36,153 nucleotides of DNA from Oscillospiraceae bacterium (lineage in GTDB: Bacteria > Bacillota > Clostridia > Oscillospirales > Oscillospiraceae): positions 1 to 36,153 of the forward strand of contig JAFTUO010000071.1 of assembly GCA_017466215.1 (NCBI GenBank). Reading direction: 5' to 3'. Position numbers and translations under genes: made by a program. Numbering within the stretch: position 1 is the first letter of the stretch; every line of letters begins with the position of its first letter. The notes below the pieces were generated by a model that searched no databases, was not told the DNA's origin, and saw only the letters and a list, made by a program, of their open reading frames with translations. Shown here one piece after another: positions 1-28,492 of the stretch.

Positions 1-40
1 ACTTCTTGCCATAAAGATAAACATTAACCATTTTTTCCAT
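1..40 (-). CDS. Start of an unidentified gene, last visible in the Flx-Hdr operon (partial)
   Basis: Only the first 13 codons are in the window, reading MEKMVNVYLYGKK, with an AAGGAG ribosome binding site just upstream. It lies 12 bases after the stop of flxA on the same strand, so it is the next gene of the mdh-fumC-hdr-flx operon. A short beta-strand-like start (VNVYLYGKK) resembles the first strand of a 2Fe-2S ferredoxin-like fold, as in the iron-sulfur subunits of fumarate reductase or similar enzymes. That is a weak inference from very little sequence, and no function can be assigned from what is visible. Confidence 0.6.
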   Translation of the reverse strand, partial: MEKMVNVYLYGKK

Positions 41-52
41 CGTTATTTCTCC

Positions 53-880
53 TTAATACTCGTCGGGCAGCTCATCCATCTGATCCAAACGGAACACAGG
101 GCCGTCCTTGCAGACGTACTTGTCGCCGATGTTGCACCGGCCGCACTTACCCAGGGCGCACTTCATCTTCAGCTCGAAGGTGGTGTATACCTGATTCTTC
201 TGGAAGCCAAGCTCCATCAGGCCAGAGAGCGTGAACTTGATCATAATGGGAGGGCCGCACATCAGAACGGTCTTGGAGGTGTCAAAGTTCAGCTCCTTGA
301 CGTAGTTGGGAACGAAGCCAACGTGGCCGTCCCACTCCGGCTGGGGATTGTCAATGGTCAGATGCACATTGATGCCGTCCTCCTTGCACCACTCGTCGAT
401 GATCTCGGGGAAGTCCACCAGATCGGCCATACTGCGGGAGCCGTAGACAATGTCGATCTTGCCGTAGCGGTCGCGGTAGTGGCGGCAGTAGTTGATGACA
501 GAGTGCAGCGGCGCAAGGCCGATGCCGCCGGCGATGAACAGCAGATCCTTGCCGGCCAGCTCCGTATCCACAGGGAAGCCGTTGCCGTAAGGGCCGCGGA
601 TGGTGATCTGCTGGCCAACTTCCATCTGATGCAGCCAGGTGGTAACGCAGCCGCACTTTTTAATGGAGAAGTCCAGGTAATCTTTTTCCGTGGGGGAGGA
701 GGTGATGGAGAACAGCGCCTCGCCCACACCGGGGATGGACAGCATTGCGCACTGTCCGGGGATATGCTCAAAGGGCTTTGCACCGTCAATACCGGTAACC
801 CGGAAGGTCTTTACATCCGGTGTGTCGGTGCGGATCATAGTCACGACGCCCAGCATAGGAATCAGCGGATCATTTCTCAT
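53..880 (-). CDS. flxA: FAD/NAD-binding oxidoreductase with 2Fe-2S cluster, FlxA-like
   Basis: A 275-residue protein of the ferredoxin-NADP reductase superfamily, close in layout to PyrK, AsrB and FlxA. The N-terminal half is the FAD domain with an FSITSSP motif in place of the usual RxYSxxS. A pyridine nucleotide domain follows with GGIGLAPLHS and CGPPIM. The C-terminus carries CALGKCGRC and a fourth cysteine (C-x4-C-x2-C-x8-C), a PyrK-type 2Fe-2S site. In FlxABCD-HdrABC complexes this subunit is the NADH entry or exit point. The start at 880 was chosen because its ATG overlaps the TGA of flxB as ATGA and has an AAGGAGG site; the reading frame extends 19 codons further upstream, but that part lies inside flxB. 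Translational coupling to flxB is likely. The family call is secure; the NADH partner role is from known Flx complexes. Confidence 0.88.
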   Translation of the reverse strand: MRNDPLIPMLGVVTMIRTDTPDVKTFRVTGIDGAKPFEHIPGQCAMLSIPGVGEALFSITSSPTEKDYLDFSIKKCGCVTTWLHQMEVGQQITIRGPYGNGFPVDTELAGKDLLFIAGGIGLAPLHSVINYCRHYRDRYGKIDIVYGSRSMADLVDFPEIIDEWCKEDGINVHLTIDNPQPEWDGHVGFVPNYVKELNFDTSKTVLMCGPPIMIKFTLSGLMELGFQKNQVYTTFELKMKCALGKCGRCNIGDKYVCKDGPVFRLDQMDELPDEY

Positions 881-1896
881 ACTTTTTCCTCCTTCAGCGC
901 CTTGGCTACCTTGACGATGTTCATATGGATGGGGCACTTTTTCAGGCAGCGGCCACAGCCGACACAGCCGAAAATGCCCTCATTGTTATTGGGGAAGTAC
1001 ACCAGCTTGTGCATAAATCTCTGGCGGAAGCGCTCCTTCTGGGTGGGGCGGTTGGTGCCGTGAGCCATCATGGTAAAGTCGGAGTACATACAGCTGTCCC
1101 AGCAGCGGAAGCGGCGTACCTCGCGGCCATTGTCGAAATCCTGCACATCGTAGCATTGGCAGGTGGGGCACACGAAGGTGCAGGTGCCGCAGCCCAGGCA
1201 GCTTTCGGAAAGCTCGGCCCACTTGGGGCTGTTGAACACATCCAGCAGCTTTTCGTCCTTAAAGGCCGAAAGATCCAGACCGTTCAGGGGCAGCTTGGCA
1301 AGAATCTTGCGGCTTTCTTCCTGCTGCGCAGTAACGGCAGCATCGTCGCAATCCGTCAGATTCAGGCTTTCGGTCAGAGCTTCGCCCTTTTCTGTATTGG
1401 CACGCCAGTACAGATTCTCGCCGTCCATCCAGCAGGTCACATCGCCGGCGGGGTCAGCCGCGTCGATGCCGAAAACGCCGCAGAAGCAGGTTTCCGCCGG
1501 GCGGGAGCAGGCCAGGGTGATCACCACGCCGTTTTCCCGGCGGGTCTGATAGAAGGTGTCCACAGGATCGGAAAGGAACACCCGATCCAGAATGTCGAAG
1601 CTGGCGCAATCGCAGGCGCGCACGCCAAAGACCACGAAGGGCTTCGCCGCATCCCGATTTTCGACAATGTCGATCTTGGTGCCTTCGACCTTGAAATTGA
1701 CCAGGTTTTCGACCTGGGGGAAGAACAGATCCTTGGCGCTGCGGACGGTGTTCAGCTTGTCAGTCAGGGAAATTCCCTCTGCCCAGGGGGTGAACTTGGC
1801 AGCGCCGGCGCCATCGTCGGCAGGGATGTACAACATTTTCTGGGAAGAAATCGCAGAAAACAGTTCATTCAACTGGGAAATTGCAATCTTTTTCAT
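877..1896 (-). CDS. flxB: 4Fe-4S dicluster protein, FlxB-like (AsrA-type)
   Basis: A 339-residue iron-sulfur protein of the anaerobic sulfite reductase A / hydrogenase beta-like group. Two C-terminal 4Fe-4S motifs are visible: CLGCGTCTFVCP (Cys 233, 236, 239, 243) and CVGCGRCLKKCP (Cys 311, 314, 317, 321). Extra cysteines at CPTCQCYD may bind further cofactor. The N-terminal 220 residues, with GVRACDCASFDIL and a LACSRPAETCFCG segment, are typical of this family. It sits between flxC and flxA with a 1-base gap and a 4-base overlap. In Flx-Hdr complexes it should wire FlxA to FlxC and FlxD. An RBS reading GGGAGG precedes the ATG. Assignment as FlxB rests on operon order as well as motifs. Confidence 0.85.
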   Translation of the reverse strand: MKKIAISQLNELFSAISSQKMLYIPADDGAGAAKFTPWAEGISLTDKLNTVRSAKDLFFPQVENLVNFKVEGTKIDIVENRDAAKPFVVFGVRACDCASFDILDRVFLSDPVDTFYQTRRENGVVITLACSRPAETCFCGVFGIDAADPAGDVTCWMDGENLYWRANTEKGEALTESLNLTDCDDAAVTAQQEESRKILAKLPLNGLDLSAFKDEKLLDVFNSPKWAELSESCLGCGTCTFVCPTCQCYDVQDFDNGREVRRFRCWDSCMYSDFTMMAHGTNRPTQKERFRQRFMHKLVYFPNNNEGIFGCVGCGRCLKKCPIHMNIVKVAKALKEEKV

Positions 1897-1897
1897 C

Positions 1898-2857
1898 TTA
1901 TTGCCCTCCCCGTTCGTGTACGATGGACGGCTCGCAGTCGTCCACGGTGAAGTTGGTCAGCGGCGGCTTGGTGTCCATATCCGCGCCGGCCTGATAAGGC
2001 CCGTACAGCTCATTGATGTCCTTGATCATCTTTCTGTTCAGCAGGTGCAGGGGGATATTCTGGGGACATACCCGGCTGCATTCACCGCAGTCGGTGCAGC
2101 GGCCGGTAACGTGGAATGCCCGAATGATGTGGAACATATTTTCCTCGAAGGAATCGGCAGCCGCCTTGTTCCGGACACCGGAGTTCGCGTTGTCGAATAC
2201 GCACTTTTCGCAGCTGCAGGCGGGGCAGACATTGCGGCAGGCGTTGCAGCGAATGCAGCGGGACAGCTCACCGCGCCAAAATTCGAAGCGCTCCTCGGGG
2301 CTCATAGCCTCTAATCTTGCGATCTCGCCGAAGCGGTCATTCTCGGTTTCTTCGCCCTGCTCGCCGATCAGCTCGTCGAAAATGACGATTTTTTTGCTCT
2401 TGCAGGAGGCGCAGCGGTCAGCGATGGCATCGGCCTTCAGAACGGTCTTTTCGCCGTACAGAGTGTCAACGATCAGGTTCTCGCCCTCTTCCTTGACGGA
2501 GAGGACACCGTCGCCCAGCTTGGCGGCATCGCACATACCGTCGCACTGAACGCCCACAACGTAAACGTTGTCACGCCAGATACGATGCTCCTTTAATAGC
2601 TGCTGGAAGGAGTAGCTGTCGCAGGGCTTGATGAATGCTGCGACCTTGCCGCCCTTGCGGCTCTCAGCGATCAGGTATTTGCTCAGGTTTGCGCCGGCAA
2701 ATACATTGAAAACGAAGTCCTTCTCGATCTGCTCCTTGGTGGTGAACACGGCGGGGGTCAGGTCGTAGAAGAATTCGCCGGCCTTCCAGCCCAGGATCCG
2801 GTCAACAGTGCCGTTTTCCAGCAGCTGGGTGGCTTTTTGTTTTAATCTTTCCTGCAT
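1898..2857 (-). CDS. flxC: 4Fe-4S dicluster protein, FlxC-like
   Basis: A 319-residue protein with two ferredoxin motifs in the C-terminal half: CIRCNACRNVCP (Cys 201, 204, 207, 211), immediately followed by more cysteines in ACSCEKC, and CTDCGECSRVCP (Cys 254, 257, 260, 264). The N-terminal part contains KPCDSYSFQQLL and a DRCASCKS segment, as in coenzyme F420 hydrogenase/dehydrogenase beta-related proteins. The start overlaps the 3' end of the MvhD-like gene by 16 bases and has a GGAGG site. The expected role is electron relay between the NADH module (FlxA) and the MvhD-like/HdrA module. The family is well supported, the exact route is inferred. Confidence 0.85.
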   Translation of the reverse strand: MQERLKQKATQLLENGTVDRILGWKAGEFFYDLTPAVFTTKEQIEKDFVFNVFAGANLSKYLIAESRKGGKVAAFIKPCDSYSFQQLLKEHRIWRDNVYVVGVQCDGMCDAAKLGDGVLSVKEEGENLIVDTLYGEKTVLKADAIADRCASCKSKKIVIFDELIGEQGEETENDRFGEIARLEAMSPEERFEFWRGELSRCIRCNACRNVCPACSCEKCVFDNANSGVRNKAAADSFEENMFHIIRAFHVTGRCTDCGECSRVCPQNIPLHLLNRKMIKDINELYGPYQAGADMDTKPPLTNFTVDDCEPSIVHERGGQ

Positions 2858-3282
2858 CTCAGATCCTCCAATCTCCGGTTCGGGCCAAGCTTATGGATCG
2901 TCGCGGAAAAGTCGTTCATAGTGGCGGCAAACTTTGCGCCCTCAGCAGCGGATACCCATTCAACACGGGTGCGCTCCCGCTCGATGCCCAAAAAGTCCAG
3001 CATAGAGAACAGCAGGGTCATACGGCGGCGGGCATAGTAGTTGCCGGTGGTGTAGTGGCAGTCGCCGGGGTGGCAACCGCACAGGATCACGCCGTCAGCG
3101 CCCCGCTGGAATGCACGCAGAACGAACATCGGATTCAGGCGGCAGGAGCAGGGGATGCGGATGATCTTTACATTGGCGGGGTACTGCAGACGGTTGGTAC
3201 CGGAAAGGTCCGCGCCTGCGTAGGAGCACCAGTTGCAGCAGAATGCAACGATGGTGGGCTTGAATTCTTCATTTACCGGCAT
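2842..3282 (-). CDS. flxD: MvhD-type 2Fe-2S protein, FlxD-like
   Basis: A 146-residue member of the MvhD family (methyl-viologen hydrogenase delta, also called hydrogenase iron-sulfur subunit), which docks electron donors to HdrA. Cysteine motifs are CCNWC (15, 16, 19), CSCR (45, 47) and CGCHPGDC (68, 70, 75). Many family members have CSGR at the second position, so Cys 47 is an extra cysteine here. The start at 3282 is chosen because the protein then begins MPVNEEFKPTIVAF, matching family length, and because its ATG overlaps the hdrA stop by 10 bases. An upstream in-frame extension to 3381 lies entirely inside hdrA and is not credible. Together with HdrA this defines the electron-bifurcation junction of the complex. 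Confidence 0.88.
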   Translation of the reverse strand: MPVNEEFKPTIVAFCCNWCSYAGADLSGTNRLQYPANVKIIRIPCSCRLNPMFVLRAFQRGADGVILCGCHPGDCHYTTGNYYARRRMTLLFSMLDFLGIERERTRVEWVSAAEGAKFAATMNDFSATIHKLGPNRRLEDLRCRKD

Positions 3283-5261
3283 ATTGCATCCACCTCCGCC
3301 ATAATTTGCTTGTTGGAGAAGCCCTTCAGGTCCATAGCACCGGAGGGGCAGGCAACGGTACAAGCGCCGCAGCCCTGGCAAACCGCGGGATTGACCTGGG
3401 CCACACGGCGAAGGAGCGTCGTGCGGTTGGGGCCGCGGAATTCCTTGTCAACATAGGTAATTGCGCCGTAGGGGCAGACCTTTTCACAGCTGGAGCAGCC
3501 GTTGCACATCAGCTCATCCGGCTGGGCGGTGCAGGGGTTGCAGACCAGATGATCCTTGTTCAGCAAACCGATGACCTTGGCTGCGGCGGCAGATGCCTGC
3601 GCCACGGTTTCGGGGATGTCCTTGGGGCCCTGGCAGGCGCCGGACAGGAAGATGCCGGCGGTGGGGCTTTCCACGGGACGCAGCTTGGGGTGTGCCTCGG
3701 TGAAGAAGTCGTTGGTGTCCATAGAGGCGGTCAGCATCGTGGCAAGAGGTCTTGCGCTCTTGTCCGGCTCGATGGCAGCAGCCAGGACAACCATATCGGC
3801 GTCGATATGCAGCTGCTGATTGCCGATCAGGTCGGAAGCCTGCACCTTCAGCTTGCCGTTTTCGGGAACGACCTTGCCCACCATACCCTTGACATAGTGG
3901 ACGCCGTATTCTTCCACAGCTCTGCGGTAGAATTCGTCGAAATTCTTACCGGGGGTACGCACATCAATATAGAATACGTACACATCGGTGTCGGGGTACT
4001 TTTCGCGGCACAGCATTGCGTGCTTGGCGGTGTACATACAGCAGATCTTGGAGCAGTAGGGCTTGCCCTTGCTGTCGTCGCAGCGGGAGCCGACGCACTG
4101 CACAAATACGATGGTGTGAGGATGCTGTCCGTCGGAAGGACGCAGCAGCGTACCGCCGGTAGGACCGGCAGCGTTCATCAGACGCTCAAACTCCAGAGAG
4201 GTAACCACGTCGGGGCTCTGGGAGTAAGCAAACTCATCGTACTGGTCCAGCTTGATGGGGTTAAAGCCGGTGGCGACCACGATTGCGCCGTATTCCTGCT
4301 CAATGAAAGCGTCCTTCTGCGTGTAGTCGATAGCGCCGGCGGTACAGACCTTGGAGCAGACGCCGCACTTGCCGGATTTCAGCATCGTGCAGTAGTCAGC
4401 GTCGATGGTAGCTACCTTCGGCACAGCCTGGGCAAAGGGGATGTAAATGGCGCGGCGGTTGTCAAGGCCCAGATTGAAGGCGTTGGGCACTTTCTTCTGG
4501 GGGCACTTTTCGGTGCAAAGACCGCAGCCGGTGCATTTGGTCTCGTCAACATACCGGGCCTTCTTCTTGATGGTGACCTTAAAGTTACCAACGAAGCCCT
4601 TGACGGAGGAAACCTCGGAGTAGGAATAAATGTGGATCTTCTCGTTCTGGGCGGCATCCACCATCTTGGGGGTCAGGATACAAGCCGCACAGTCCAATGT
4701 GGGGAAGGTCTTGTCGATCTGGGTCATCTTGCCGCCGATGGTGGGCTCTTTTTCCACGATGTCCACATCAAAGCCGGCGTCAGCGATGTCCAGCGCCGTC
4801 TGGATGCCGGCGATACCGCCGCCGATGACCAGCGCACGCTTCTTAACGGGGGATGTGCCGGAGGTCAGGGGTGCATTCAGGTGTACCTTGGCGATGGCGG
4901 CGCGGCCCAGGATGACGGCCTTCTCGGTGGCAGTTTCCTTGTCCTTGTGGATCCAGGAGCACTGCTCACGGATATTGGCGATCTCCACCATATAGGGGTT
5001 CAGGCCAGCCTTCTCGCAGGTCTTGCGGAAGGTGTTTTCGTGCATTCTGGGGGAGCAGGAGCAGATCACAACACCGGTAAGATTGTACTTAGCGATGCTT
5101 TCCTGGATCATTTCCTGACCGGCCTGGGAGCACATATACTGATAATTGGTGGAAAAGACCACGCCGGGCTCTTTGGCCAAAACTTCGGCAACCTTTTCCA
5201 CATCTACCGTGGCGGCGATGTTACTGCCGCACCAGCAGACGAATACGCCTACGCGTTGCAT
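3273..5261 (-). CDS. hdrA: Heterodisulfide reductase subunit A-like flavoprotein
   Basis: A 662-residue HdrA, the FAD subunit that performs flavin-based electron bifurcation in Hdr complexes. In order: an N-terminal domain with FVCWCG (Cys 9, 11) and CSCSPRMHE around residue 67; a Rossmann FAD motif GGGIAGIQTALDIA at 147-160; LDCAACILTPKM near 189-200; an inserted ferredoxin domain with Cys 243, 246, 249, 253 and 291, 299, 302, 306; and C-terminal clusters CNGCSSCEKVCP (586-597) and CQGCGACTVACP (628-639). The size is usual for a bacterial HdrA. It lies between hdrC (11-base gap, GAGGTG ribosome binding site) and the MvhD-like gene (10-base overlap). Whether it truly bifurcates cannot be read from the motifs alone, but the subunit set NADH module, MvhD, HdrA, HdrBC is the one known for this. 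Confidence 0.92.
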   Translation of the reverse strand: MQRVGVFVCWCGSNIAATVDVEKVAEVLAKEPGVVFSTNYQYMCSQAGQEMIQESIAKYNLTGVVICSCSPRMHENTFRKTCEKAGLNPYMVEIANIREQCSWIHKDKETATEKAVILGRAAIAKVHLNAPLTSGTSPVKKRALVIGGGIAGIQTALDIADAGFDVDIVEKEPTIGGKMTQIDKTFPTLDCAACILTPKMVDAAQNEKIHIYSYSEVSSVKGFVGNFKVTIKKKARYVDETKCTGCGLCTEKCPQKKVPNAFNLGLDNRRAIYIPFAQAVPKVATIDADYCTMLKSGKCGVCSKVCTAGAIDYTQKDAFIEQEYGAIVVATGFNPIKLDQYDEFAYSQSPDVVTSLEFERLMNAAGPTGGTLLRPSDGQHPHTIVFVQCVGSRCDDSKGKPYCSKICCMYTAKHAMLCREKYPDTDVYVFYIDVRTPGKNFDEFYRRAVEEYGVHYVKGMVGKVVPENGKLKVQASDLIGNQQLHIDADMVVLAAAIEPDKSARPLATMLTASMDTNDFFTEAHPKLRPVESPTAGIFLSGACQGPKDIPETVAQASAAAAKVIGLLNKDHLVCNPCTAQPDELMCNGCSSCEKVCPYGAITYVDKEFRGPNRTTLLRRVAQVNPAVCQGCGACTVACPSGAMDLKGFSNKQIMAEVDAICR

Positions 5262-5272
5262 GATCTTTCACC

Positions 5273-5644
5273 TCACTTTCTGTATTTACGGAAGGCGGCG
5301 GTGATGGCCTGCTGAGGCAGCTCATCATCCAGCAGCGCCGGAATTTCGTCGGGGGTCAGGTGTGCGCCGCCCTGCTGACGGACAACCGCCAGACGGACAG
5401 CCTCGATCACCTTGGCCGGCTCTACATTTCTGGGGCAGCGCTCCACGCAGGCAAAGCAGCTCAGGCAGAAGTCGATACCCTCGGAATTCATCAGCTCGTG
5501 AATGCGGCCGTTTTCCACCATATCTACAAACTGATGGGGGTGAAACTGCATCCTCTCAAAGGCCGGGCAGGAAGCGGTGCATTTGCCGCACTTCATACAC
5601 TTGCGGGGATTGACGCCGGAAATGCGCTTGATAGTGTCGATCAT
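5273..5644 (-). CDS. hdrC: Heterodisulfide reductase subunit C-like ferredoxin
   Basis: A 123-residue two-cluster ferredoxin protein that links HdrA to HdrB. Both 4Fe-4S motifs are complete: CMKCGKCTASCP (Cys 16, 19, 22, 26) and CLSCFACVERCP (Cys 60, 63, 66, 70), followed by the usual helical C-terminus. The start at 5644 gives the protein MIDTIKRISGVNPRKC, has an AAGGAGG site, and overlaps the hdrB stop as ATGA, so translational coupling is likely. A 36-codon upstream extension in the same frame would lie within hdrB and was rejected. The length is shorter than methanogen HdrC, as is usual for bacterial versions. Confidence 0.9.
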   Translation of the reverse strand: MIDTIKRISGVNPRKCMKCGKCTASCPAFERMQFHPHQFVDMVENGRIHELMNSEGIDFCLSCFACVERCPRNVEPAKVIEAVRLAVVRQQGGAHLTPDEIPALLDDELPQQAITAAFRKYRK

Positions 5645-6432
5645 TTTGCTGCCTCCTTTACGCCAAGAGCTTCGGCCAGAAGCTCGGTGAAGTAAGCAAC
5701 GGGAAGACCGTCCGTTGCGTTTTCTTTCAGGTTGTACAGGCACAGCGGGCAAGCGGTGATCAATTCTTCTGCGCCGCAGTTGCGGGCGTTTTCCATAATG
5801 GCATCCACCTGCTTGGTGGCAAAGCCCTTGTCCTTAATGGTGCAGTAGCCGCCGCAGCATTCGTTGCGCCGGGCATAGATCACCGGCTCAGCGCCGATAG
5901 CGCGGATGAAATCCTCCAAAATGGTGGGATTTTCAGGATCGTCAAAGCCCATTTCGCTGGCAGGACGCAGCAGCATACAGCCGTAGTAAGCGCCGATCTT
6001 GCGGCCGGTCAGGGGATTGACCACCTTTTCCTTAAGAACATCGAAGCCAATCTTGTCCCGCAGAACTTCTAAGTAGTGCCGCACATTGGTTTCGCCTGCA
6101 TAGGGGGTCTCCAGCTTTAAGTAACGGGCAACCTTGTCGCGGATGGTTTCGTCGGTGCGCAGGTCATTGTTGACCCGCTTGATCACGTGGTGGCAGGCGG
6201 AGCAAAGGGTTACCAGATCCTGGCCCTTTTCTCCCGCGGCCATCAGCGCGCGGACAGAGGAAAGTCTGGTGGCAATTTCGTCTTTTGCCATGGGGTACAC
6301 AGCGCCGCAGCACTGCCAATCCGGCAGCTCTTCCAGCGTAAAGCCCAGCGCCTCCGCGGAGGCTCTGCCCCAGATATCCAGATCTTTACCTTTTGTTTTC
6401 AGGGTACAACCCGGAAAATAAGAATATGTCAT
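5641..6432 (-). CDS. hdrB: Heterodisulfide reductase subunit B-like (two CCG domains)
   Basis: A 263-residue protein with two CCG domains, the active-site subunit of Hdr complexes that binds non-cubane 4Fe-4S clusters. The first domain has Cys 9, Cys 41-42 (QCCGAV) and CSAC (77, 80). The second has Cys 152, ECCGGYC (192, 193, 197) and CPLC (228, 231). All cluster-binding cysteines expected for an active HdrB appear to be present. In methanogens the substrate is CoM-S-S-CoB; bacteria lack this, and in Desulfovibrio DsrC has been proposed as partner. No DsrC gene is visible here, so the electron acceptor is unknown. The gene follows fumC by 16 bases with a GAGGAA ribosome binding site. Confidence 0.9.
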   Translation of the reverse strand: MTYSYFPGCTLKTKGKDLDIWGRASAEALGFTLEELPDWQCCGAVYPMAKDEIATRLSSVRALMAAGEKGQDLVTLCSACHHVIKRVNNDLRTDETIRDKVARYLKLETPYAGETNVRHYLEVLRDKIGFDVLKEKVVNPLTGRKIGAYYGCMLLRPASEMGFDDPENPTILEDFIRAIGAEPVIYARRNECCGGYCTIKDKGFATKQVDAIMENARNCGAEELITACPLCLYNLKENATDGLPVAYFTELLAEALGVKEAAK

Positions 6433-6448
6433 AGCAATTCCTCTTTTA

Positions 6449-7825
<1,377 letters not shown>

Positions 7826-7838
7826 AGAGAAATCCTCC

Positions 7839-8786
7839 TTAGATTTCGATGGCTGCGATGGTCTCTTTCAGCTTGTCGGCGCTGCGATGCAGCTTTGCCA
7901 GCTCGTCGTCGGTCAGATCGTTCTGGATCTTGCCGCGGATGCCGGTGTCGTCAACAATGCACAGGGTGCTCAGGCACACGTCGTTGATGCCGTACTCGCC
8001 CTTCATCATAGAAGAAACGGTCAGAGCTGTGCCGGAGCCGTTGAAGATGCAGCGAACGATATGGCAGACAGACATAGCAACGGCGTAGTTGGTAACGCCC
8101 TTGGCCTTGATGACCACAGCGCCGCTGGTGCGCACGTGCTCTTCGATGCCCTCATAGTCGCCGTTAAAGGCAATGTGCTGATTCTTGGGGGCGTTCTTCT
8201 TGTAGTTGGCAATGCGGTTGTTGGAAATGGTGGCCAGAGACCAGGGCACGAAGGAGCTGTCGCCGTGCTCACCGTAAACGTGGGCGTGGACATTCTTGGG
8301 GCTGATGTTGAACTGTCTTGCCAGCTCAGCCTGCAGACGGGCGGTATCCAGGATCGTACCGGAGCCGATGATCCGCTTTCTGGGAATGCCGGAGATCTTG
8401 TGGAACACATAGGTCAGCACGTCAACGGGATTGGAAACGATAATATAGATGGCATCGGGAGCGTACTTGACGATGTTGGGCGTAATATCCTTCAGGATAT
8501 TTACGTTGGTCTGTGCCAGCTCCAGACGGGTCTGGCCGGGCTTTCTGGGAAGACCGGAGGTGATAACAACAATATCAGAGCCCTTGGCATCCTCGTAATC
8601 GCCGCCGTAGACATTGGCAGGAGAAGCAAAGCTTAAGCCCTGATAGATGTCCATAGCTTCGCCGAAGGCCTTTTCCTTGTTAATGTCCACCAGAACGATC
8701 TCTGTTGCGACGTTGGTGACTGCCAGGTCGTTGGCGATGGATGCGCCGACACTGCCGGCACCGATGATCGTGATTTTTTTGCCCAT
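7839..8786 (-). CDS. mdh: LDH-like malate dehydrogenase (NAD-dependent)
   Basis: A 315-residue member of the lactate/malate dehydrogenase family. IGAGSVG near the N-terminus is the NAD-binding loop and Asp 34 in VLVD indicates NAD over NADP. Catalytic residues are Asp 147 and Arg 150 (LDTARLQ) and His 174 (GEHGDS); Arg 87 is the second substrate arginine. The substrate-specificity position reads GLPRKPG, with Arg 81 where lactate dehydrogenases have Gln (position 102 in the usual numbering). Arginine there selects dicarboxylates, so malate/oxaloacetate is predicted although homology searches would often say L-lactate dehydrogenase. The adjacent fumarase agrees. Start: ATG 8786 is 10 bases from AAGGAG; an in-frame ATG at 8792 (MIMGKK) is an equally plausible start. 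First gene of the operon. Confidence 0.85.
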
Positions 8787-8878
8787 AATCATTACTCTCC
8801 TTGTAAAAATGTGTGGGTTTGTTACTTCCTTAAGGTCGCCGCAAATTTGCTCGCAGCAACCCATTGTTAACCATCATA

Positions 8879-8907
8879 ATTGTACTCTTTTTTACAGAAA
8901 AAGTCAA
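8879..8907 (-). promoter_or_regulatory. Sigma-A promoter of the mdh-fumC-hdr-flx operon
   Basis: On the minus strand TTGACT (8907-8902) and TACAAT (8884-8879) are separated by exactly 17 bases. This is the only good promoter seen between mdh and the left window edge. The leader to the mdh start is about 85 bases and includes a perfect 10-bp palindrome GCAAATTTGC at 8841-8850, whose role is unknown. Confidence 0.8.
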
Positions 8908-9236: not shown

Positions 9237-10859
9237 ATGGAGAAGAAGTTTCGCAAGCTGGGCACGATGCTGGACTGCTCCCGCAATGCCGTGTCCACCG
9301 TTGATGGCGTAAAAAAGTGGATCGACCTGACGGCGGATATGGGCTACAACTGCCTGATGCTGTATACGGAAGATACATATGAAGTGGATGATAACCCCTA
9401 TTTCGGCTATATGCGTGGCCGCTACAGCCAGGAAGAGCTGAAGGAAATGGACGCCTATGCCCTGAGTAAGGGTATGGAGCTGATTCCCTGCATCCAGGTG
9501 CTGGCGCACTTAGGCGCAATTCAGAGATGGCCGGATTACTGGCCCCATTTTGATACCGACGATATCCTGCTCATCGGCGATGAGCGGGTGTACGAGCTGA
9601 TCGAGTCTATGTTCGCTACCGTCGCCAAATGCTTCACCACCAAGACCGTGCACATCGGTATGGACGAAGCCCATATGGTGGGCCGTGGCCGCTATTACGA
9701 TCAGCACGGCCATCAGGACCACTCTCAGGTGATGATCGACCATTTGAATCGTGTTTGCGAAATCGGCAAAAAGTACGGCTTTAATTTCCTGATGTGGTCG
9801 GATATGTTCATCAAGCTGGTAACCGGCGGCGAGTACTACACCGACGCGGAGATCAGTGATGATATCCGCCGCCAGATCCCGGACAATGTCCAGCTGGTGT
9901 ACTGGGACTATTACTCCACCAAGAAAGAGCATTACGACGGCATGCTTCATACCCACCAGAAGATCAAGCCCGGCACCTGGTTTGCCGGCGGCATCTGGAC
10001 CTGGGCCGGCTTCGCGCCCCATAACGGTTATTCGATGAAGGCGGTCAAGGCATCCATCGACAGCTGTGTGGAAAACGGCGTGCAGGACGTGATCTATACC
10101 CTGTGGGGCGATTGGGGCGGCGAATGCTCCAAGTTCTCCCTGCTCCCCGCGGTGTTCTACGCCGCGGAGTATGCCAACGGCAATGAGGACGAGGAATCCA
10201 TTAAGGCAAAATTCGAGGCAAAATTCGGCGTAAAGTGGGATGACTTTATGCTGCTGGATCTGCCCGGCACGCCCAATGGCGCGGCGGATTACATCTGCAA
10301 CGCGGATAAATATTTGCTCTATAACGACTGCCTGCTGGGCATTATGGATAAGCAGGTGTTCGAGGGCGAGGGCAAGCTCTTTGCTAATTGCGCCAAGACG
10401 CTGGACAAGATGGTCGATCATCCTGAATGGGGGTATCTGTTCAAGACGATGCAGGCGCTGTGCCAGGTGCTGGAGCTGAAGGCAGAGCTGTCTGTTCGTA
10501 CCCACAAGATCTACCTCAGCGGCGATAAGGCAGCCCTGCCCGCCCTGATCGAAGACTATGACGAGACAATTAAGCGGGTCAAAAACTATTTGAAGATCTA
10601 CCGCAAGCAGTGGTTTATCGACAATAAGCCCCACGGCTTCGACATCCAGGACATCCGCCTCGGCGGCGTCATCGCCCGCTTAGAAGCTGCCCGGGATCGC
10701 CTGCAGGAGCTTCTTGACGGCGAAATTGACCGCATCGCTGAGCTGGAAGAGGAGCAGCTGGACTTCCTGGGCCGCGAGGGCGCAAAGCGTGAGCCTTCCA
10801 CTTGGTGGGCAATGTGGCACTGGATGACCACGCCTAACCTGATGGCGGCGATGGAGTAA
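9237..10859 (+). CDS. GH20-type beta-N-acetylhexosaminidase, cytoplasmic
   Basis: A 540-residue glycoside hydrolase of the GH20 fold. The catalytic Asp-Glu pair lies in VHIGMDEAH (Asp 143, Glu 144), in the position of the HxGxDE motif of GH20 enzymes. ELIPCIQVLAHL at 81-92 matches the barrel strand before it, and aromatic residues in GGIWTWAGF and YTLWGDWGGE resemble the N-acetyl-binding Trp-rich site. There is no signal peptide, so it should act on imported amino-sugar oligosaccharides or glycosides, like the intracellular GH20 group of streptococci. The C-terminal 190 residues are helical and Glu-rich, of unknown role. A GGAGGG site precedes the ATG. It is followed after two bases by the broken amidohydrolase gene. 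GH20 membership is probable; exact substrate (GlcNAc or GalNAc linkage) cannot be read. Confidence 0.78.
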   Translation: MEKKFRKLGTMLDCSRNAVSTVDGVKKWIDLTADMGYNCLMLYTEDTYEVDDNPYFGYMRGRYSQEELKEMDAYALSKGMELIPCIQVLAHLGAIQRWPDYWPHFDTDDILLIGDERVYELIESMFATVAKCFTTKTVHIGMDEAHMVGRGRYYDQHGHQDHSQVMIDHLNRVCEIGKKYGFNFLMWSDMFIKLVTGGEYYTDAEISDDIRRQIPDNVQLVYWDYYSTKKEHYDGMLHTHQKIKPGTWFAGGIWTWAGFAPHNGYSMKAVKASIDSCVENGVQDVIYTLWGDWGGECSKFSLLPAVFYAAEYANGNEDEESIKAKFEAKFGVKWDDFMLLDLPGTPNGAADYICNADKYLLYNDCLLGIMDKQVFEGEGKLFANCAKTLDKMVDHPEWGYLFKTMQALCQVLELKAELSVRTHKIYLSGDKAALPALIEDYDETIKRVKNYLKIYRKQWFIDNKPHGFDIQDIRLGGVIARLEAARDRLQELLDGEIDRIAELEEEQLDFLGREGAKREPSTWWAMWHWMTTPNLMAAME

Positions 10860-10861
10860 TT

Positions 10862-11639
10862 ATGGTACATTTACCTCAATTTTCTCATATGCCGGTGGAT
10901 ATCCACTGCCATTTTCAATCACGGCAGTGCGCTGGATGTGGCGGATTCGCCCATTAGCCAGAACAGCATTGAATTTCTGCACGATGCCTATGACCGTATG
11001 GGCATCGCCTGGGGCGGCATCAGCACCTATGCATCGGTGTTTCACCCTGATGGCGCAGGCGTGACGGAAAGCAACCGCTGGCTGTATGATTTTGCCGCGC
11101 AGACAGATTGGGTGCGCCAGTGGGTCGTGATCGACCCCCGGGTGGAAGAAAGCTTCCGGCAGGCGGAGCAGATGCTCACGTCACCTAAGACTTTGGGCAT
11201 CAAGATCCATCCTACGTTCCACCAGTACGATCTGGCAGAGTATGGCGACAAAATTTTTGGTTTTGCTAACGAGCATAATGCCGTGGTGCTGATGCACCCG
11301 GTGATGACCCCAGAGGGAATGGAGCAGGCGGCCCATTTTGCGGATAAATATCCCGATATGAAGCTGATTTCGGCCCATCTTTGCTCTGTGGAGCAGGTGG
11401 ATCTTCTGAAAAACCACGAAAACATCTATACCGACACCTCCGGCGGCGCCAGCAACTTGAACAACGTGCTGGAATGCGCTGTGGAGAATGTGGGCTCGGA
11501 GAAGATCCTCTTCGGTACGGACGGTTATTCGGCAGAGTTCCAGTTTGGCCGTGTGGCGCTGTCCCGCCTTGCGCAGGAGGATAAGGAGAACATTTTGTAT
11601 CGAAATGCGATGCGGCTGTTCCTAAAGGCATTTGAATAA
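10862..11639 (+). pseudogene. Amidohydrolase (amidohydrolase_2 family) with a one-base frameshift
   Basis: Reading starts at ATG 10862, two bases after the GH20 stop with a GGAG site, and gives MVHLPQFSHMPVDIHCHF before running into a TAG. The rest of the family sequence continues in the next frame as NHGSALDVADSP and stays open to 11639. The break is at a run of four T (10912-10915); removing one T restores HCHFNHGSA and a single protein of about 258 residues. Visible metal-site elements are the HxH of DIHCHF, IKIHP, ISAHL and the late LFGTDG aspartate, as in metal-dependent TIM-barrel hydrolases. A GTG at 10938 could start a truncated form but would lose the HxH motif. Either a recent mutation or an assembly error in a homopolymer. 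Substrate unknown; the GH20 neighbour hints at sugar or amide catabolism. Confidence 0.8.
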
Positions 11640-11645
11640 ACCGCT

Positions 11646-11679
11646 GCAGGCAGGTGAATTTCACCTGCCTGCGATTTTT
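11646..11679 (+). terminator. Rho-independent terminator after the amidohydrolase
   Basis: A perfect 13-bp inverted repeat, GCAGGCAGGTGAA at 11646-11658 with its complement at 11660-11672, followed by five T at 11675-11679. It separates the GH20 unit from mtlD. Confidence 0.85.
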
Positions 11680-11698
11680 GTCTGTACAAAAATCCCCC

Positions 11699-11727
11699 TT
11701 GCATATTGGCCGCAACTTTCCTATAAT
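11699..11727 (+). promoter_or_regulatory. Promoter of mtlD
   Basis: TTGCAT at 11699-11704 and TATAAT at 11722-11727, 17-base spacer, about 33 bases before the ATG. Confidence 0.82.
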
Positions 11728-11759
11728 AAGGGAAGAATTTACAGAAAGAAGATGTGTTT

Positions 11760-12974
11760 ATGAAAAAAGCAGTTATGTACGGCGGCGGCAATATCGGCCG
11801 CGGCTTCATCGGCGCATTGCTGAGCCAGTCCGGCTATCAGGTTTCCTTCATCGACGTGGCAGAAGCGGTGGTTACCGCCCTGCAGGAGAAGAATACCTAT
11901 CCCGTCCGCTATGTTACCAGTGATGGCCACGAGGACGTGTGGATCGAAAACGTTACCGCCGTCAACGGCAATGACACCGAGGCGGCCTCCGATGCCATCG
12001 CAAATTGCGACATTATGGCCACCGCTGTGGGCGCAAGAATCTTAAAATTCATCGTGCCCAATATCGTTGCCGGCCTGCGCAAGCGCTGGGCAAAGACCGA
12101 CGCACCCCTGAACATCATCATCTGCGAAAACCTGATGGATGCCAACAAGGTGCTGGAGGGTATGCTGAAAGAACAGCTGACCGCCGAAGAATGTGCGCTT
12201 TTCGACAAGACCGTGGGTCTGGTGGAGGCTTCCATCGGCCGTATGGTGCCGGTGCAGACGGAAGCGATGAAGGACGGCGAGCCCCTGCGTGTCTGCGTGG
12301 AGCGCTACGGCTTCCTGCCGGTGGACAAGGCGGCATTTAAGGGCGAAATTCCCGCAATCACCAATATGGTGCCCTGCGAGCCCTTTGATTTTTACATCAA
12401 GCGCAAGCTGTATGTCCATAATATGGGCCACGCCACCTGCGCATATCTTGGCGATTTGCTGGGGCTTGAGTATATTTACCAGGCCATTGCCGTGCCGGAA
12501 ATTCGCATTCTGGTGCACAACGCGATGCTGGAAAGCGCCGCCGCACTTTCCAAGATGTACAATAAGCCCCTGCAGGACCTGCTGGATCATATTACCGATC
12601 TTCTGTACCGCTTTACCAACGCCGCCCTGGGCGACACCTGCCAGCGGGTGGGCGGCGACCCTGCCCGGAAGCTGAGCCCCGAGGACCGGCTCATCGGCGC
12701 ATCCAGAACGGCGATGGAAATGGGCATCACCCCGGCCTATATCTCCATCGGCACAGCCGCCGGCCTGAAGCGGTATATCGCTGAGAACGCTCTGGAGCAG
12801 AATATGGACAGCGCCAAGAAGGTACTGACCCAGGTCTGCGAGCTGGATGTTTCCGGCAAGCTGGCCCAGCGGATTTTGGGCAATTACGCATTGCTTCTGG
12901 AGGGTGCAACGGTGCAGGACCTGCTGAAAACCGCCCAGGAGCAGAAGCACCAGAGCCTGCTGAACGTAATTTAA
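11760..12974 (+). CDS. mtlD: Mannitol-1-phosphate 5-dehydrogenase
   Basis: A 404-residue polyol dehydrogenase that interconverts mannitol 1-phosphate and fructose 6-phosphate with NAD. The N-terminal GGGNIGRGFIG is the MtlD form of the nucleotide-binding motif, and KRKLYVHNMGHATCAYLG around residues 210-230 is the long-chain mannitol dehydrogenase signature with the catalytic Lys, Asn and His. It is about 20 residues longer than the enterobacterial enzyme. ATG 11760 is preferred to GTG 11754 because the protein then begins MKKAVMYGGG; the ribosome binding site is weak (GAAAGAAG). No mannitol PTS gene lies nearby, and it is monocistronic between two terminators, so the sugar source is not shown by context. 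Confidence 0.9.
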   Translation: MKKAVMYGGGNIGRGFIGALLSQSGYQVSFIDVAEAVVTALQEKNTYPVRYVTSDGHEDVWIENVTAVNGNDTEAASDAIANCDIMATAVGARILKFIVPNIVAGLRKRWAKTDAPLNIIICENLMDANKVLEGMLKEQLTAEECALFDKTVGLVEASIGRMVPVQTEAMKDGEPLRVCVERYGFLPVDKAAFKGEIPAITNMVPCEPFDFYIKRKLYVHNMGHATCAYLGDLLGLEYIYQAIAVPEIRILVHNAMLESAAALSKMYNKPLQDLLDHITDLLYRFTNAALGDTCQRVGGDPARKLSPEDRLIGASRTAMEMGITPAYISIGTAAGLKRYIAENALEQNMDSAKKVLTQVCELDVSGKLAQRILGNYALLLEGATVQDLLKTAQEQKHQSLLNVI

Positions 12975-13465: not shown

Positions 13466-13759
13466 ATGACTCTGCGCAGCAAAGCGATGGACACCTTATT
13501 CAAAACCATACTGAATCTTGAGAGCGTAGACGAGTGCTACGCCTATTTTGAAGACCTCTGCACCGTCAAGGAGCTGCAGGATATGGCCCAGCGGCTGGAG
13601 ACGGCGATCTTGCTGTCTGAGGGCGCAAGCTATCAGGAGATCACCCAAAGCTGCAGTATCAGCACCGCCACCATCGGCCGGGTCAGCAAGTGTTTAAATT
13701 ACGGCTCCGGCGGCTACCGCTCCGCCATCAACAAGCTGAAAGAGGGGGATGCGGAATGA
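13466..13759 (+). CDS. TrpR/YerC-family regulator of histidine synthesis
   Basis: A 97-residue protein of the YerC/YecD group of TrpR-like repressors, all helical. The family core is clear: VDECYAYFEDLCTVKELQDM, then QRLETAILLSEGASYQEI and the helix-turn-helix SISTATIGRVSKCL, ending in a GSGGY segment. Comparative genomics has linked such proteins in Gram-positive bacteria to control of his genes, which fits its place as the first gene of this operon behind a palindromic site. A GGAGGA site precedes the ATG, and its TGA overlaps the hisZ start as ATGA. The effector is presumably histidine, as tryptophan is for TrpR; that is inference. Confidence 0.85.
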   Translation: MTLRSKAMDTLFKTILNLESVDECYAYFEDLCTVKELQDMAQRLETAILLSEGASYQEITQSCSISTATIGRVSKCLNYGSGGYRSAINKLKEGDAE

Positions 13760-14817
13760 AAACAATGGACCTGCCCCTGGATGTAACCGAGAGAATCGCA
13801 TTTCGTCTGCGCACCCTTTACCGCAAGTACGGCTACACCCAGTATAAGATGAGCAAATTCGAGGAATATGACCTCTACGCCCGCAATAAAGACTTCCTGC
13901 TGTCGGAAAATGTCATCACCTTCACAGACCTTTCCGGCAAGCTGATGGCCCTGAAGCCCGACGTTACGCTGTCCATCGTCAAGAACAGCCGGGACGACGC
14001 CCAGGGGCTGCAGAAGCTTTACTACCACGAAAATGTGTACCGGGTGTCGAAAAATTCCCAGGGCTTCCGGGAGATCCAGCAGGTTGGCCTGGAAACCTTA
14101 GGAAATATCGACGATTACTGCATTTTGGAGGTGCTGCAGTTGGCGGCGCAGAGCCTTGCGGAAATCTCCGATGACAGCATTCTGGAAATTTCCCACTTAG
14201 GGTTGATGTCTTCGCTGACGCAGGACCTGAGCAGCGATCAGAAAGCGGAAATTTTCCGCTGCGTGGGCAGCAAGAATCTACACGAGCTGGATGCTGTTTG
14301 CAAAGCCGCCGGCGTTCAGGAGGAGACCGCACAGCTGATCAAAGCCCTGGCCTCCATCGGAGGCGCGCCGGAAACGGTGCTGCCCAAGGTAAGAGCGTTA
14401 TTGGGGGACAACAAGCCCCTGCAGCTGCTGGAGCAGGTCAGCGCGATCCTTGGCGACAAGATCCGCATTGACTTCTCCCAGGTGGACGACATCCACTACT
14501 ATAACGGCATCGTGTTCAAGGGCTTCATCCGGGGGGTGCCAAATGCGGTACTGTCCGGCGGTCAGTATGACAAGCTGATGCGCAAGATGAAGCGGGAAAG
14601 CTCCGCCATCGGCTTTGCAGTATATATGGATCTGCTGGAGCGGCTGGAGCAAGAATTGCCGGAATACGATGTGGACACCGTCCTGCTGTATAGTGATGAA
14701 TCTATCGCCGAAGTCAGCGCCGCCGCTAAGGCGCTGATGGACGCCGGCCAAAGTGTTGCGGTGTACCGCCAGATCCCGGAGGGTCTGCGCTACCGCGAAG
14801 CAAAAACAGTGAGGTGA
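13756..14817 (+). CDS. hisZ: ATP phosphoribosyltransferase regulatory subunit HisZ
   Basis: A 353-residue class II aminoacyl-tRNA synthetase-like protein, related to HisRS but acting as the regulatory partner of short-form HisG. Visible HisRS-like elements are RLRTLYRKYGYTQ (motif 1 area), FTDLSGKLMALKPDVT, and YYNGIVFKGFI with SGGQYDKL near the end. It lacks the C-terminal anticodon-binding domain of HisRS. The start at 13756 gives MKTMDLPLDVTER; longer in-frame starts lie inside the regulator gene. The gene overlaps the regulator by 4 bases and is followed 6 bases later by a short-form hisG, which needs HisZ for activity. Confidence 0.92.
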   Translation: MKTMDLPLDVTERIAFRLRTLYRKYGYTQYKMSKFEEYDLYARNKDFLLSENVITFTDLSGKLMALKPDVTLSIVKNSRDDAQGLQKLYYHENVYRVSKNSQGFREIQQVGLETLGNIDDYCILEVLQLAAQSLAEISDDSILEISHLGLMSSLTQDLSSDQKAEIFRCVGSKNLHELDAVCKAAGVQEETAQLIKALASIGGAPETVLPKVRALLGDNKPLQLLEQVSAILGDKIRIDFSQVDDIHYYNGIVFKGFIRGVPNAVLSGGQYDKLMRKMKRESSAIGFAVYMDLLERLEQELPEYDVDTVLLYSDESIAEVSAAAKALMDAGQSVAVYRQIPEGLRYREAKTVR

Positions 14818-14823
14818 AGACCC

Positions 14824-15465
14824 GTGAAACCCATACTGAATGTGGCACTGCCCAAGGGTCGCCTGGGCGAAAAAGTGTATGCAATGATGGAAAAGGCAGG
14901 CTTTTCCTGCCCCGCCATTTATGAAAATAACCGCAAGCTGATCTTCGAAAATCCCGAAAAGGGCGTGCGCTATTTCTGGGTCAAGCCCTCGGACGTTGCC
15001 ATTTACGTGGAGCGGGGCACGGCGGATATCGGCATCGTGGGCAAGGATATTTTGCTGGAATATGCGCCGGATGTGTACGAGCTTCTGGATCTGAACATCG
15101 GCAAATGCCGGATGGCCGTGGCCGCGCCCAAGGGCTTCCGTGACGACCAGCGCCGCACCCTGCGGGTCGCGACAAAATTCAGCAATATCGCCGCCCGGCA
15201 TTACTTAAGCAAGGGCCGGGATATCGACATTATCCACCTCAACGGCTCTATTGAGGTCGCCCCAATTCTGGGCCTGAGCGATGTCATCGTGGACATCGTG
15301 GAGACCGGCACGACATTAAAAGAAAACGATTTGGAAGTGAAGGAGACCATCGTCCCCATCAGCGCCCGGCTCATCGCCAACAAGGCCAGCTACAAGTTCC
15401 AGAGCGACACCATTGACTACGTTACCCAGAGCATTGCATCCCAAGTGGAGGAAACCAATGATTAA
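14824..15465 (+). CDS. hisG: ATP phosphoribosyltransferase catalytic subunit, short form
   Basis: First enzyme of histidine synthesis, joining ATP and PRPP. At 213 residues it is the short form, which lacks the C-terminal regulatory domain and works as a complex with HisZ. ALPKGRLGEK at the N-terminus and VDIVETGTTLKEN (the PRPP-binding loop) are clear. The start codon is GTG at 14824 with GAGGTGAAG upstream. The 3' end overlaps hisD by 8 bases. Confidence 0.95.
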   Translation: MKPILNVALPKGRLGEKVYAMMEKAGFSCPAIYENNRKLIFENPEKGVRYFWVKPSDVAIYVERGTADIGIVGKDILLEYAPDVYELLDLNIGKCRMAVAAPKGFRDDQRRTLRVATKFSNIAARHYLSKGRDIDIIHLNGSIEVAPILGLSDVIVDIVETGTTLKENDLEVKETIVPISARLIANKASYKFQSDTIDYVTQSIASQVEETND

Positions 15466-16732: not shown

Positions 16733-16734
16733 TT

Positions 16735-20468: not shown

Positions 20469-20471
20469 GCT

Positions 20472-28453: not shown

Positions 28454-28492
28454 AGTATTCACCTTGATGTTGTGGTTGTAGAGGACGGGCAT

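What the first reader, a model, noticed from the sequence alone, without database searches (positions are those of the whole stretch)
1..8907. Malate dehydrogenase, fumarase and a full Flx-Hdr electron-transfer complex in one operon
The nine complete genes mdh-fumC-hdrB-hdrC-hdrA-flxD-flxC-flxB-flxA and a tenth partial one are tightly spaced (overlaps of 4-16 bases or gaps under 20) behind a single promoter. FlxABCD-HdrABC complexes are known as NADH dehydrogenase/heterodisulfide reductase-type systems, thought to bifurcate electrons between ferredoxin and a disulfide partner. Here no DsrC or alcohol dehydrogenase gene accompanies them; instead the two enzymes making fumarate from oxaloacetate do. 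I infer that the low- or high-potential branch may feed fumarate reduction, directly or through a soluble fumarate reductase encoded beyond the left edge. That would be a soluble, bifurcation-linked C4 pathway in a fermenting anaerobe.
Basis: partly seen in the sequence, partly recalled or inferred. Interest (0 to 1): 0.75.

Follow-up and report, generated by a model that had tools for sequence, protein, structure and literature searches.

The report
NADH-driven soluble fumarate reductase gene cluster
This gut bacterium carries one gene cluster that appears to turn oxaloacetate into succinate with a soluble, flavin-based electron-splitting enzyme complex; the idea was already published for one heat-loving relative but not proven, and here the cluster turns out to recur in many gut Clostridia.

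Summary
In detail: nine genes (mdh-fumC-hdrBCA-flxDCBA) in tight order, a tenth cut by the contig edge. The tenth gene is frdB; frdA follows it in 75 of 75 named loci with room. In the window's own draft genome another contig (C23) repeats the flxA end (93.5% over 447 bases) and continues frdB-frdA-antiporter. FrdA keeps the fumarate-binding residues but lacks the histidine that bonds FAD. "mdh" scores as lactate dehydrogenase, yet 59 of 59 copies carry the malate-type arginine. Of 291 genomes of the class, FrdB is in 40, this HdrA in 43, both in 39. Best reading: NADH electrons are split at HdrA, half to ferredoxin, half through HdrC-HdrB-FrdB-FrdA to fumarate; Rnf recovers the ferredoxin energy. 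Complex formation and bifurcation are inferred. The kind is not new: a "succinate operon" with the same parts was proposed for Pseudoclostridium thermosuccinogenes (PMC7282089). Added here: recurrence in gut Clostridia, mdh in the operon, several gene orders, two fumarase types, and a FrdBA core with exchangeable neighbours.

The parts
1..40 (-). frdB, first 13 codons only (cut by contig edge); fumarate reductase iron-sulfur subunit
   Evidence: MEKMVNVYLYGKK matches FrdB N-termini of relatives; own full copy on G000:C23:27661-28332
53..880 (-). flxA: FAD/NAD(P)-binding subunit (AsrB/HydG-like), NADH entry (inferred); ORF can also start at 937
   Evidence: PF00175, PF00970, PF10418 over cut-off
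877..1896 (-). flxB: iron-sulfur subunit (AsrA/HydB-like)
   Evidence: PF17179 over cut-off; sulfhydrogenase beta models below cut-off
1898..2857 (-). flxC: iron-sulfur subunit
   Evidence: PF13183 over cut-off
2842..3282 (-). flxD: MvhD/FlpD-like subunit, proposed link from Flx to HdrA
   Evidence: PF02662, 184.8 bits
3273..5261 (-). hdrA: FAD protein of the kind that bifurcates in methanogen HdrABC (bifurcation here inferred)
   Evidence: near full-length match to 5odc_A, E 7.3e-207
5273..5644 (-). hdrC: subunit with two [4Fe-4S] ferredoxin-like motifs
   Evidence: PF13183 over cut-off, TIGR03290 below cut-off; motif in 78 of 78 copies
5641..6432 (-). hdrB: two CCG domains, ligands for two non-cubane [4Fe-4S] clusters; proposed dock for FrdB
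   Evidence: PF02754; best NCBIfam model is the SdhE-type subunit of menaquinol:fumarate reductase, 145 bits, below its cut-off of 500; both motifs in 78 of 78 copies
6449..7825 (-). fumC: class II fumarase
   Evidence: TIGR00979 712.4 bits, cut-off 664.75
7839..8786 (-). mdh: LDH-family malate dehydrogenase (Arg at specificity position); ORF opens at 8864
   Evidence: TIGR01771 over cut-off, Arg in 59 of 59 copies, best solved relative 1y6j also Arg there
8879..8907 (-). sigma-70-like promoter TTGACT-17-TACAAT
   Evidence: best of 5 sites; number not above shuffles

Best explanation
The cluster encodes a cytoplasmic oxaloacetate-to-succinate module. Malate dehydrogenase and fumarase make fumarate. 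FlxA takes a hydride from NADH; electrons pass FlxB, FlxC and FlxD to the FAD of HdrA. There each pair is split: one electron goes to ferredoxin, the other through HdrC and HdrB to FrdB and FrdA, which reduces fumarate. Net (inferred): 2 NADH + fumarate + oxidised ferredoxin -> 2 NAD+ + succinate + reduced ferredoxin. Rnf then turns the reduced ferredoxin into an ion gradient, or a hydrogenase into H2. Shown: gene content, order, conservation, catalytic residues, co-occurrence. Inferred: complex formation, electron path, bifurcation, direction.
For: frdA follows frdB in 75 of 75 and frdB follows flxA in 75 of 75 named loci with room; the own draft has both on C23 after a flxA end. HdrB and FrdA occur in the same 16 of 60 genomes, own included. 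Of 291 class genomes FrdB is in 40, HdrA in 43, both in 39; 33 of the 39 on one contig within 6 kb. FrdA aligns with E. coli FrdA at His232, Thr244/Glu245, Arg287, His355, Arg390, with Asn in place of His44 (residue numbers and roles recalled); all these motifs in 81 of 87 copies; its model's first Foldseek hit is E. coli FrdA. HdrA is homologous almost end to end with HdrA of the methanogen complex 5odc (that this one bifurcates is recalled). The parts stay together in other orders: frdBA-hdrBCA-flxCBA (L159), hdrCBA-flxDCBA-frdBA (L136). A class I fumarase stands in for FumC in 3 of 15 order-level loci. Rnf genes in the own genome.
Against: No biochemistry. FrdBA of the same family also occurs without Flx genes nearby: of 38 distant loci HdrB is near in 19, HdrA in 12, flxA in 1. 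Rnf does not track the cluster: over cut-off in 53 of 60 genomes, 13 of the 16 carriers and 40 of the 44 others. PEPCK_ATP was found in only 11 of the 16 carriers, so the oxaloacetate source is not settled for all. 3 of 15 order-level loci lack mdh and fumC upstream. The FrdB model was poor (pLDDT 52), so docking to HdrB could not be examined.
Confidence: 0.72

Rival explanations
1. NADH:fumarate reductase without bifurcation: HdrA only relays electrons, all go to fumarate and no ferredoxin is reduced.
For: NADH to fumarate is strongly downhill by the potentials in PMC5861303 (passages), so bifurcation is not needed for turnover.
Against: The cluster keeps a full HdrA with its ferredoxin-like domains, homologous almost end to end with HdrA of the methanogen complex; a simpler diaphorase would do.
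Confidence: 0.15
2. Two separate reactions joined by a small dithiol: HdrB reduces a disulfide and FrdBA works as a thiol:fumarate reductase.
For: Both non-cubane cluster motifs of HdrB are intact in 78 of 78 copies; TfrAB of methanogens works that way (recalled); TfrA is the best NCBIfam model for FrdA, though below cut-off.
Against: FrdB is a separate protein without a CCG domain of its own; the best model for HdrB is SdhE, a subunit recalled to bind SdhB directly; FrdBA sits with HdrBC and no HdrA or Flx in view in several distant loci such as L124, L132, L133, L138.
Confidence: 0.1
3. FrdA reduces another enoate, or the system runs in reverse to oxidise succinate.
For: FrdA-type flavoproteins have many substrates (recalled); class I fumarase and malic enzyme beside FrdBA in distant loci would suit either direction.
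Against: Fumarate-binding residues conserved, malate dehydrogenase and fumarase in the same cluster, FAD-bonding histidine replaced by Asn; loss of that bond is recalled to abolish succinate oxidation.
Confidence: 0.05

Closest known systems
'Succinate operon' of Pseudoclostridium thermosuccinogenes (PMC7282089; passages seen; its source, a 2019 preprint by Koendjbiharie and van Kranenburg, is not held)
   Same: fumarate hydratase, Flx-Hdr, a two-gene fumarate reductase and a hypothetical protein (potentially a succinate transporter); proposed to couple fumarate to ferredoxin reduction; up about 4-fold under CO2 limitation, though not significant for every subunit; H2 addition stopped succinate, Na2S did the opposite
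   Different: mdh is not listed in that operon; transporter type not compared; its proteins were not fetched by name here
FlxABCD-HdrABC of Desulfovibrio vulgaris (Ramos 2015, seen only as a citation)
   Same: the seven Flx-Hdr subunits
   Different: linked there to ethanol metabolism (its title); here to malate, fumarate and Frd
tfrAB interspersed with flxABCD-hdrABC in reverse TCA clusters of sulfur bacteria (PMC6315080, passages)
   Same: Flx-Hdr beside a fumarate reductase, proposed to shuttle electrons directly to it
   Different: autotrophs; the clusters also hold kor and acl genes; subunit make-up not compared here
Desulfovibrio alaskensis G20 pyruvate fermentation with fumarate reductase, Hdr/flox-1 and Rnf (PMC4215793, passages)
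   Same: fumarate reduction, Hdr-Flox and Rnf proposed to work in one metabolism; Hdr/flox-1 and Rnf mattered for fitness in one study and not in the other
   Different: its fumarate reductase is described as a menaquinol enzyme of the Wolinella type
TfrAB thiol:fumarate reductase and SdhABE-type menaquinol:fumarate reductase (recalled)
   Same: Frd core plus an HdrB-like CCG subunit
   Different: HdrB is fused to FrdB in TfrB; SdhABE takes electrons from quinol

Membership tests
FlxABCD-HdrABC complex | seven subunits HdrA, HdrB, HdrC, FlxA-D encoded together | tested here: met
FlxABCD-HdrABC complex | NADH oxidation coupled to ferredoxin reduction | not testable with these tools
   needs enzyme assay
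Flx-Hdr-linked fumarate reductase (P. thermosuccinogenes type) | fumarase + Flx-Hdr + two frd genes in one row | tested here: met
   frdBA after flxA in 75 of 75 named loci with room; fumC before hdrB in 57 of 59; in the own draft the row is split over C66 and C23, so contiguity there is inferred
Flx-Hdr-linked fumarate reductase (P. thermosuccinogenes type) | transporter-like gene after frdA | tested here: met
   AspT/YidE-type antiporter after frdA on C23; 39 of 61 named loci with room; not compared with the P. thermosuccinogenes gene
Flx-Hdr-linked fumarate reductase (P. thermosuccinogenes type) | sequence relation to the P. thermosuccinogenes proteins themselves | not tested
TfrAB thiol:fumarate reductase | TfrB = FrdB fused to HdrB | tested here: not met
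   FrdB 224 aa without CCG domain
TfrAB thiol:fumarate reductase | NCBIfam TfrA cut-off (718 bits) | tested here: not met
   338 and 331 bits in the two copies scanned
membrane quinol:fumarate reductase / succinate dehydrogenase | covalent-FAD histidine | tested here: not met
   Asn at that position, in 83 of 87 copies by motif, 4 not resolved
membrane quinol:fumarate reductase / succinate dehydrogenase | membrane anchor gene beside frdAB | not tested
   no anchor model was run; none was noticed in the maps
L-aspartate oxidase (NadB) | NCBIfam NadB cut-off (452.75 bits) | tested here: not met
   261 and 253 bits in the two copies scanned
L-lactate dehydrogenase (for the mdh gene) | TIGR01771 cut-off | tested here: met
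   338.1 against 303.55
L-lactate dehydrogenase (for the mdh gene) | Gln at specificity position 102 (recalled) | tested here: not met
   Arg in 59 of 59 copies (47 by motif, 12 by eye)
bifurcating HdrA | full-length homology with FAD and ferredoxin-like domains | tested here: met
   5odc_A aligned over 3-660 of 662

The most novel reading that the evidence does not exclude
FrdBA of this family is a plug-in soluble fumarate reductase core that docks on HdrB(C) and is wired to different donor modules in different lineages. In gut Clostridia it forms one large soluble complex with HdrABC-FlxABCD, supplied by its own malate dehydrogenase (of the lactate dehydrogenase family) and fumarase: a quinone-free fumarate respiration that saves energy through ferredoxin and Rnf.
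Probability: 0.5. Interest if true: 0.65.

Novelty: new member of a known kind. Interest (0 to 1): 0.47.

Why it matters
Succinate is a main product of gut fermentation, and fumarate reduction is usually thought to need a membrane and a quinone. A soluble, ferredoxin-coupled route would change the ATP yield and H2 balance assigned to many uncultured gut Clostridia. The enzyme type was proposed in 2019-2020; in the listings of ten searches of an open-access library and the passages I opened I saw no assay of it. The clusters listed here give many candidates for that assay.

Tried and rejected
FrdB fold: the prediction was too poor to search (pLDDT 52). Rnf and PEP carboxykinase as correlates of the cluster: Rnf (rnfC over cut-off) in 53 of 60 genomes, PEPCK_ATP in 35 of 60; carriers 13 of 16 and 11 of 16, others 40 of 44 and 24 of 44, so neither tracks it. 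A simple 'one origin per genus' history is doubtful: on a FrdA tree of 72 rows (38 of the 80 named loci, 20 distant ones, 9 of the window's genus with its own, 5 of the order) the genus needs 5 changes, and two of its copies group with one from another family at SH-aLRT 100. The AU test there (p 3e-48) overstates this, because named rows in the other group may belong to the same genus; two sets of identical rows show that some genomes are in both collections. Aspartate oxidase and TfrA labels for FrdA fell to the cut-offs. Passages of PMC10579422, PMC9044749, PMC7382037, PMC8097209 and PMC6776011 showed no further case of this operon.
Full report
What is there. The window is one whole contig (C66) of a fragmented draft genome, 93 contigs, 83% complete. 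On the minus strand from 8864 down lie mdh, fumC, hdrB, hdrC, hdrA, flxD, flxC, flxB, flxA, each with family matches, spaced by overlaps of 4-16 or gaps of 1-16 bases. A tenth gene starts at 40 and is cut by the contig end.

What lies to the left. HdrB was found in 16 of 60 genomes of the genus and order, own genome included. Stretches around the other 15 show, after flxA, a 224-residue iron-sulfur protein whose first residues match the cut tenth gene, then a flavoprotein of about 530 residues; two loci are cut by contig ends (L023 within hdrA, L027 within frdA). The first has a 2Fe-2S domain and two 4Fe-4S motifs, the second is FAD_binding_2 with TfrA and SdhA/FrdA as best relatives, below their cut-offs. 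They are FrdB and FrdA. FrdA was found in the same 16 of 60 genomes. In the own genome FrdA is on C23; the end of C23 matches window 1-447 at 93.5% DNA identity and holds the flxA end, frdB, frdA and an AspT-type antiporter. The mismatch suggests that strain variants broke the assembly there; one row in this genome is likely, not shown.

How firm the neighbourhood is. By their titles most are uncultured Clostridia or Oscillospiraceae, many from animal guts, and two are Treponema-like. Counting only loci with room: hdrB-hdrC 61 of 61, hdrC-hdrA 62 of 62, hdrA-flxD 61 of 61, flxD-flxC 69 of 70, flxC-flxB 71 of 71, flxB-flxA 56 of 56, flxA-frdB 75 of 75, frdB-frdA 75 of 75, fumC before hdrB 57 of 59, mdh before fumC 46 of 56, antiporter after frdA 39 of 61. 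These 80 are close relatives. In the 15 order-level loci mdh is in 12 and fumC in 9; 3 others have a class I fumarase after frdA instead, and L023, L027 and L029 show neither mdh nor fumC upstream although there is room. So two unrelated fumarases fill the same place, but the fumarate-forming genes are not universal.

An unselected sample. In 291 genomes drawn evenly from the class, FrdB is in 40, this HdrA (E <= 1e-100) in 43, both in 39. FrdB alone is in one draft (75% complete). HdrA alone is in four: two are longer proteins matched in part, one is in a 62% complete draft, one is a 49% identical full-length copy. In 33 of the 39 both lie on one contig within 6 kb; in 6, the own genome included, they lie on different contigs. 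Kinship and linkage make a simple p-value meaningless, but in this class this HdrA is nearly confined to genomes with FrdB.

Far relatives. In 398 genomes of the phylum FrdB is in 39. I mapped all 38 outside the own genome: frdA beside it in 37 (the other ends at a contig edge), HdrB in 19, HdrC-like in 20, HdrA in 12, flxA in 1, any fumarase in 13, malic enzyme in 13, mdh-like in 1; some stretches are short, so these are lower bounds. FrdBA thus looks like a core with exchangeable neighbours. Flx-Hdr sits with it in at least three orders: hdrBCA-flxDCBA-frdBA here; hdrCBA-flxDCBA-frdBA in L136; frdBA-hdrBCA-flxCBA in L159, a class genome, where flxD was not found. One family has a longer hdrCBA row with further HdrA-like genes (L134, L147, L150-L155). 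A FrdA tree puts 52 near rows on one side and the 20 distant rows on the other at SH-aLRT 97.

Catalysis. FrdA aligns with E. coli FrdA so that His232, Thr244, Glu245, Arg287, His355 and Arg390 are matched and the FAD-bonding His44 is Asn (numbers and roles recalled). The motifs are complete in 81 of 87 copies; in 4 the His44 position was not resolved by the pattern and in 2 the last motif differs. HdrB double CCG motif 78 of 78, HdrC 78 of 78, FrdB cluster motifs 94 of 94. The FrdB count is partly circular: the scan that fetched the 80 loci searched for peptides with the 2Fe-2S cysteines; and it leaves out the own C23 copy, which has Phe for one of them. HdrA matches 5odc_A over 3-660; HdrB matches HdrB of the same kind of complexes. 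The FrdA model (pLDDT 77, pTM 0.81) has E. coli fumarate reductase as first hit, followed closely by succinate dehydrogenases, with aspartate oxidase lower. Its first 80 or so residues, conserved across copies, lie outside the region aligned to the solved proteins.

The mdh gene. It passes the lactate dehydrogenase cut-off and fails those of the malate dehydrogenase models, and its best solved relatives are called lactate dehydrogenase. But all 59 copies have Arg where lactate dehydrogenases have Gln (rule recalled), and the top relative 1y6j has Arg there too. With fumarase beside it, malate dehydrogenase is the better name. A few genomes are counted twice in these tallies, as two sets of identical FrdA rows show.

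Mechanism. Using E0' -320 mV for NAD and +33 mV for fumarate (passages of PMC5861303), NADH to fumarate releases about 68 kJ per pair; lifting a second pair to ferredoxin at -420 to -500 mV (recalled) costs about 19 to 35 kJ, so bifurcation is affordable. Rnf-type genes lie on C24 of the own genome (rnfC 370.9 bits, cut-off 245.95, with RnfD, RnfG, RnfA/E and ApbE family genes; no RnfB among the nine frames scanned), and a PEP carboxykinase fragment on C77. A [FeFe] hydrogenase gene is in the window itself. None of these shows that bifurcation takes place.

Known or new. PMC7282089 (passages) describes in P. thermosuccinogenes a 'succinate operon' of fumarate hydratase, Flx-Hdr, fumarate reductase and a hypothetical protein that may be a transporter, assumes that fumarate reduction is linked to ferredoxin reduction, and cites a 2019 preprint for it. 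PMC6315080 (passages) suggests that flx-hdr shuttles electrons directly to tfrAB in sulfur bacteria. So the kind is published as a hypothesis. In the listings of ten searches and the passages I opened I saw no assay of it and no report of this cluster in gut Clostridia; subscription papers and preprints were not searched. What this adds is the recurrence, the mdh gene, the fumarase swap, the alternative gene orders and the modular core.

Noticed in passing
L119 (G000:C23:27661-28332): The own genome's FrdB has Phe at a position that is a 2Fe-2S cysteine in all 14 rows of A1 and all 30 rows of A3. It may be an assembly error in a polymorphic spot.
   Followed up: no
window 1-447 against L119 3293-3739: Two contigs of one draft genome overlap by 447 bases at only 93.5% identity: the draft seems to mix strains.
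   Followed up: partly
L120:2768-3780 (C24): The RnfD-family protein is split into two reading frames next to rnfC; frameshift or assembly error.
   Followed up: no
window 27050-28492 (-): [FeFe] hydrogenase with ferredoxin domains, a possible outlet for reduced ferredoxin, 18 kb from the cluster.
   Followed up: no
window 25666-26883 (-): Iron-containing alcohol dehydrogenase; so an ADH gene exists in the window, though not in the cluster.
   Followed up: no
window 13690-21122 (+): Compact histidine biosynthesis row (HisZ-like, HisG, HisD, aminotransferase, HisB, HisH-like, two HisA/HisF-type, HisIE).
   Followed up: partly
window 9237-12974 (+): Divergent neighbours of the cluster: GH20C-type hexosaminidase, then an amidohydrolase and a mannitol dehydrogenase family gene.
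   Followed up: no
L134, L147, L150-L155: FrdBA at the end of a long row with hdrC, hdrB, hdrA and further HdrA-like genes, malic enzyme in several; a different donor arrangement in another family of the phylum.
   Followed up: partly
L137:10214-11516: Two proteins with haem-binding CxxCH motifs (seen by eye, no family search) between class I fumarase and frdBA, suggesting a membrane-linked version.
   Followed up: no
L034 FrdA residues 1-80 and homologs (A4): Conserved N-terminal extension of FrdA outside the region aligned to solved Frd/Sdh/NadB proteins; confident in the model, function unknown.
   Followed up: partly
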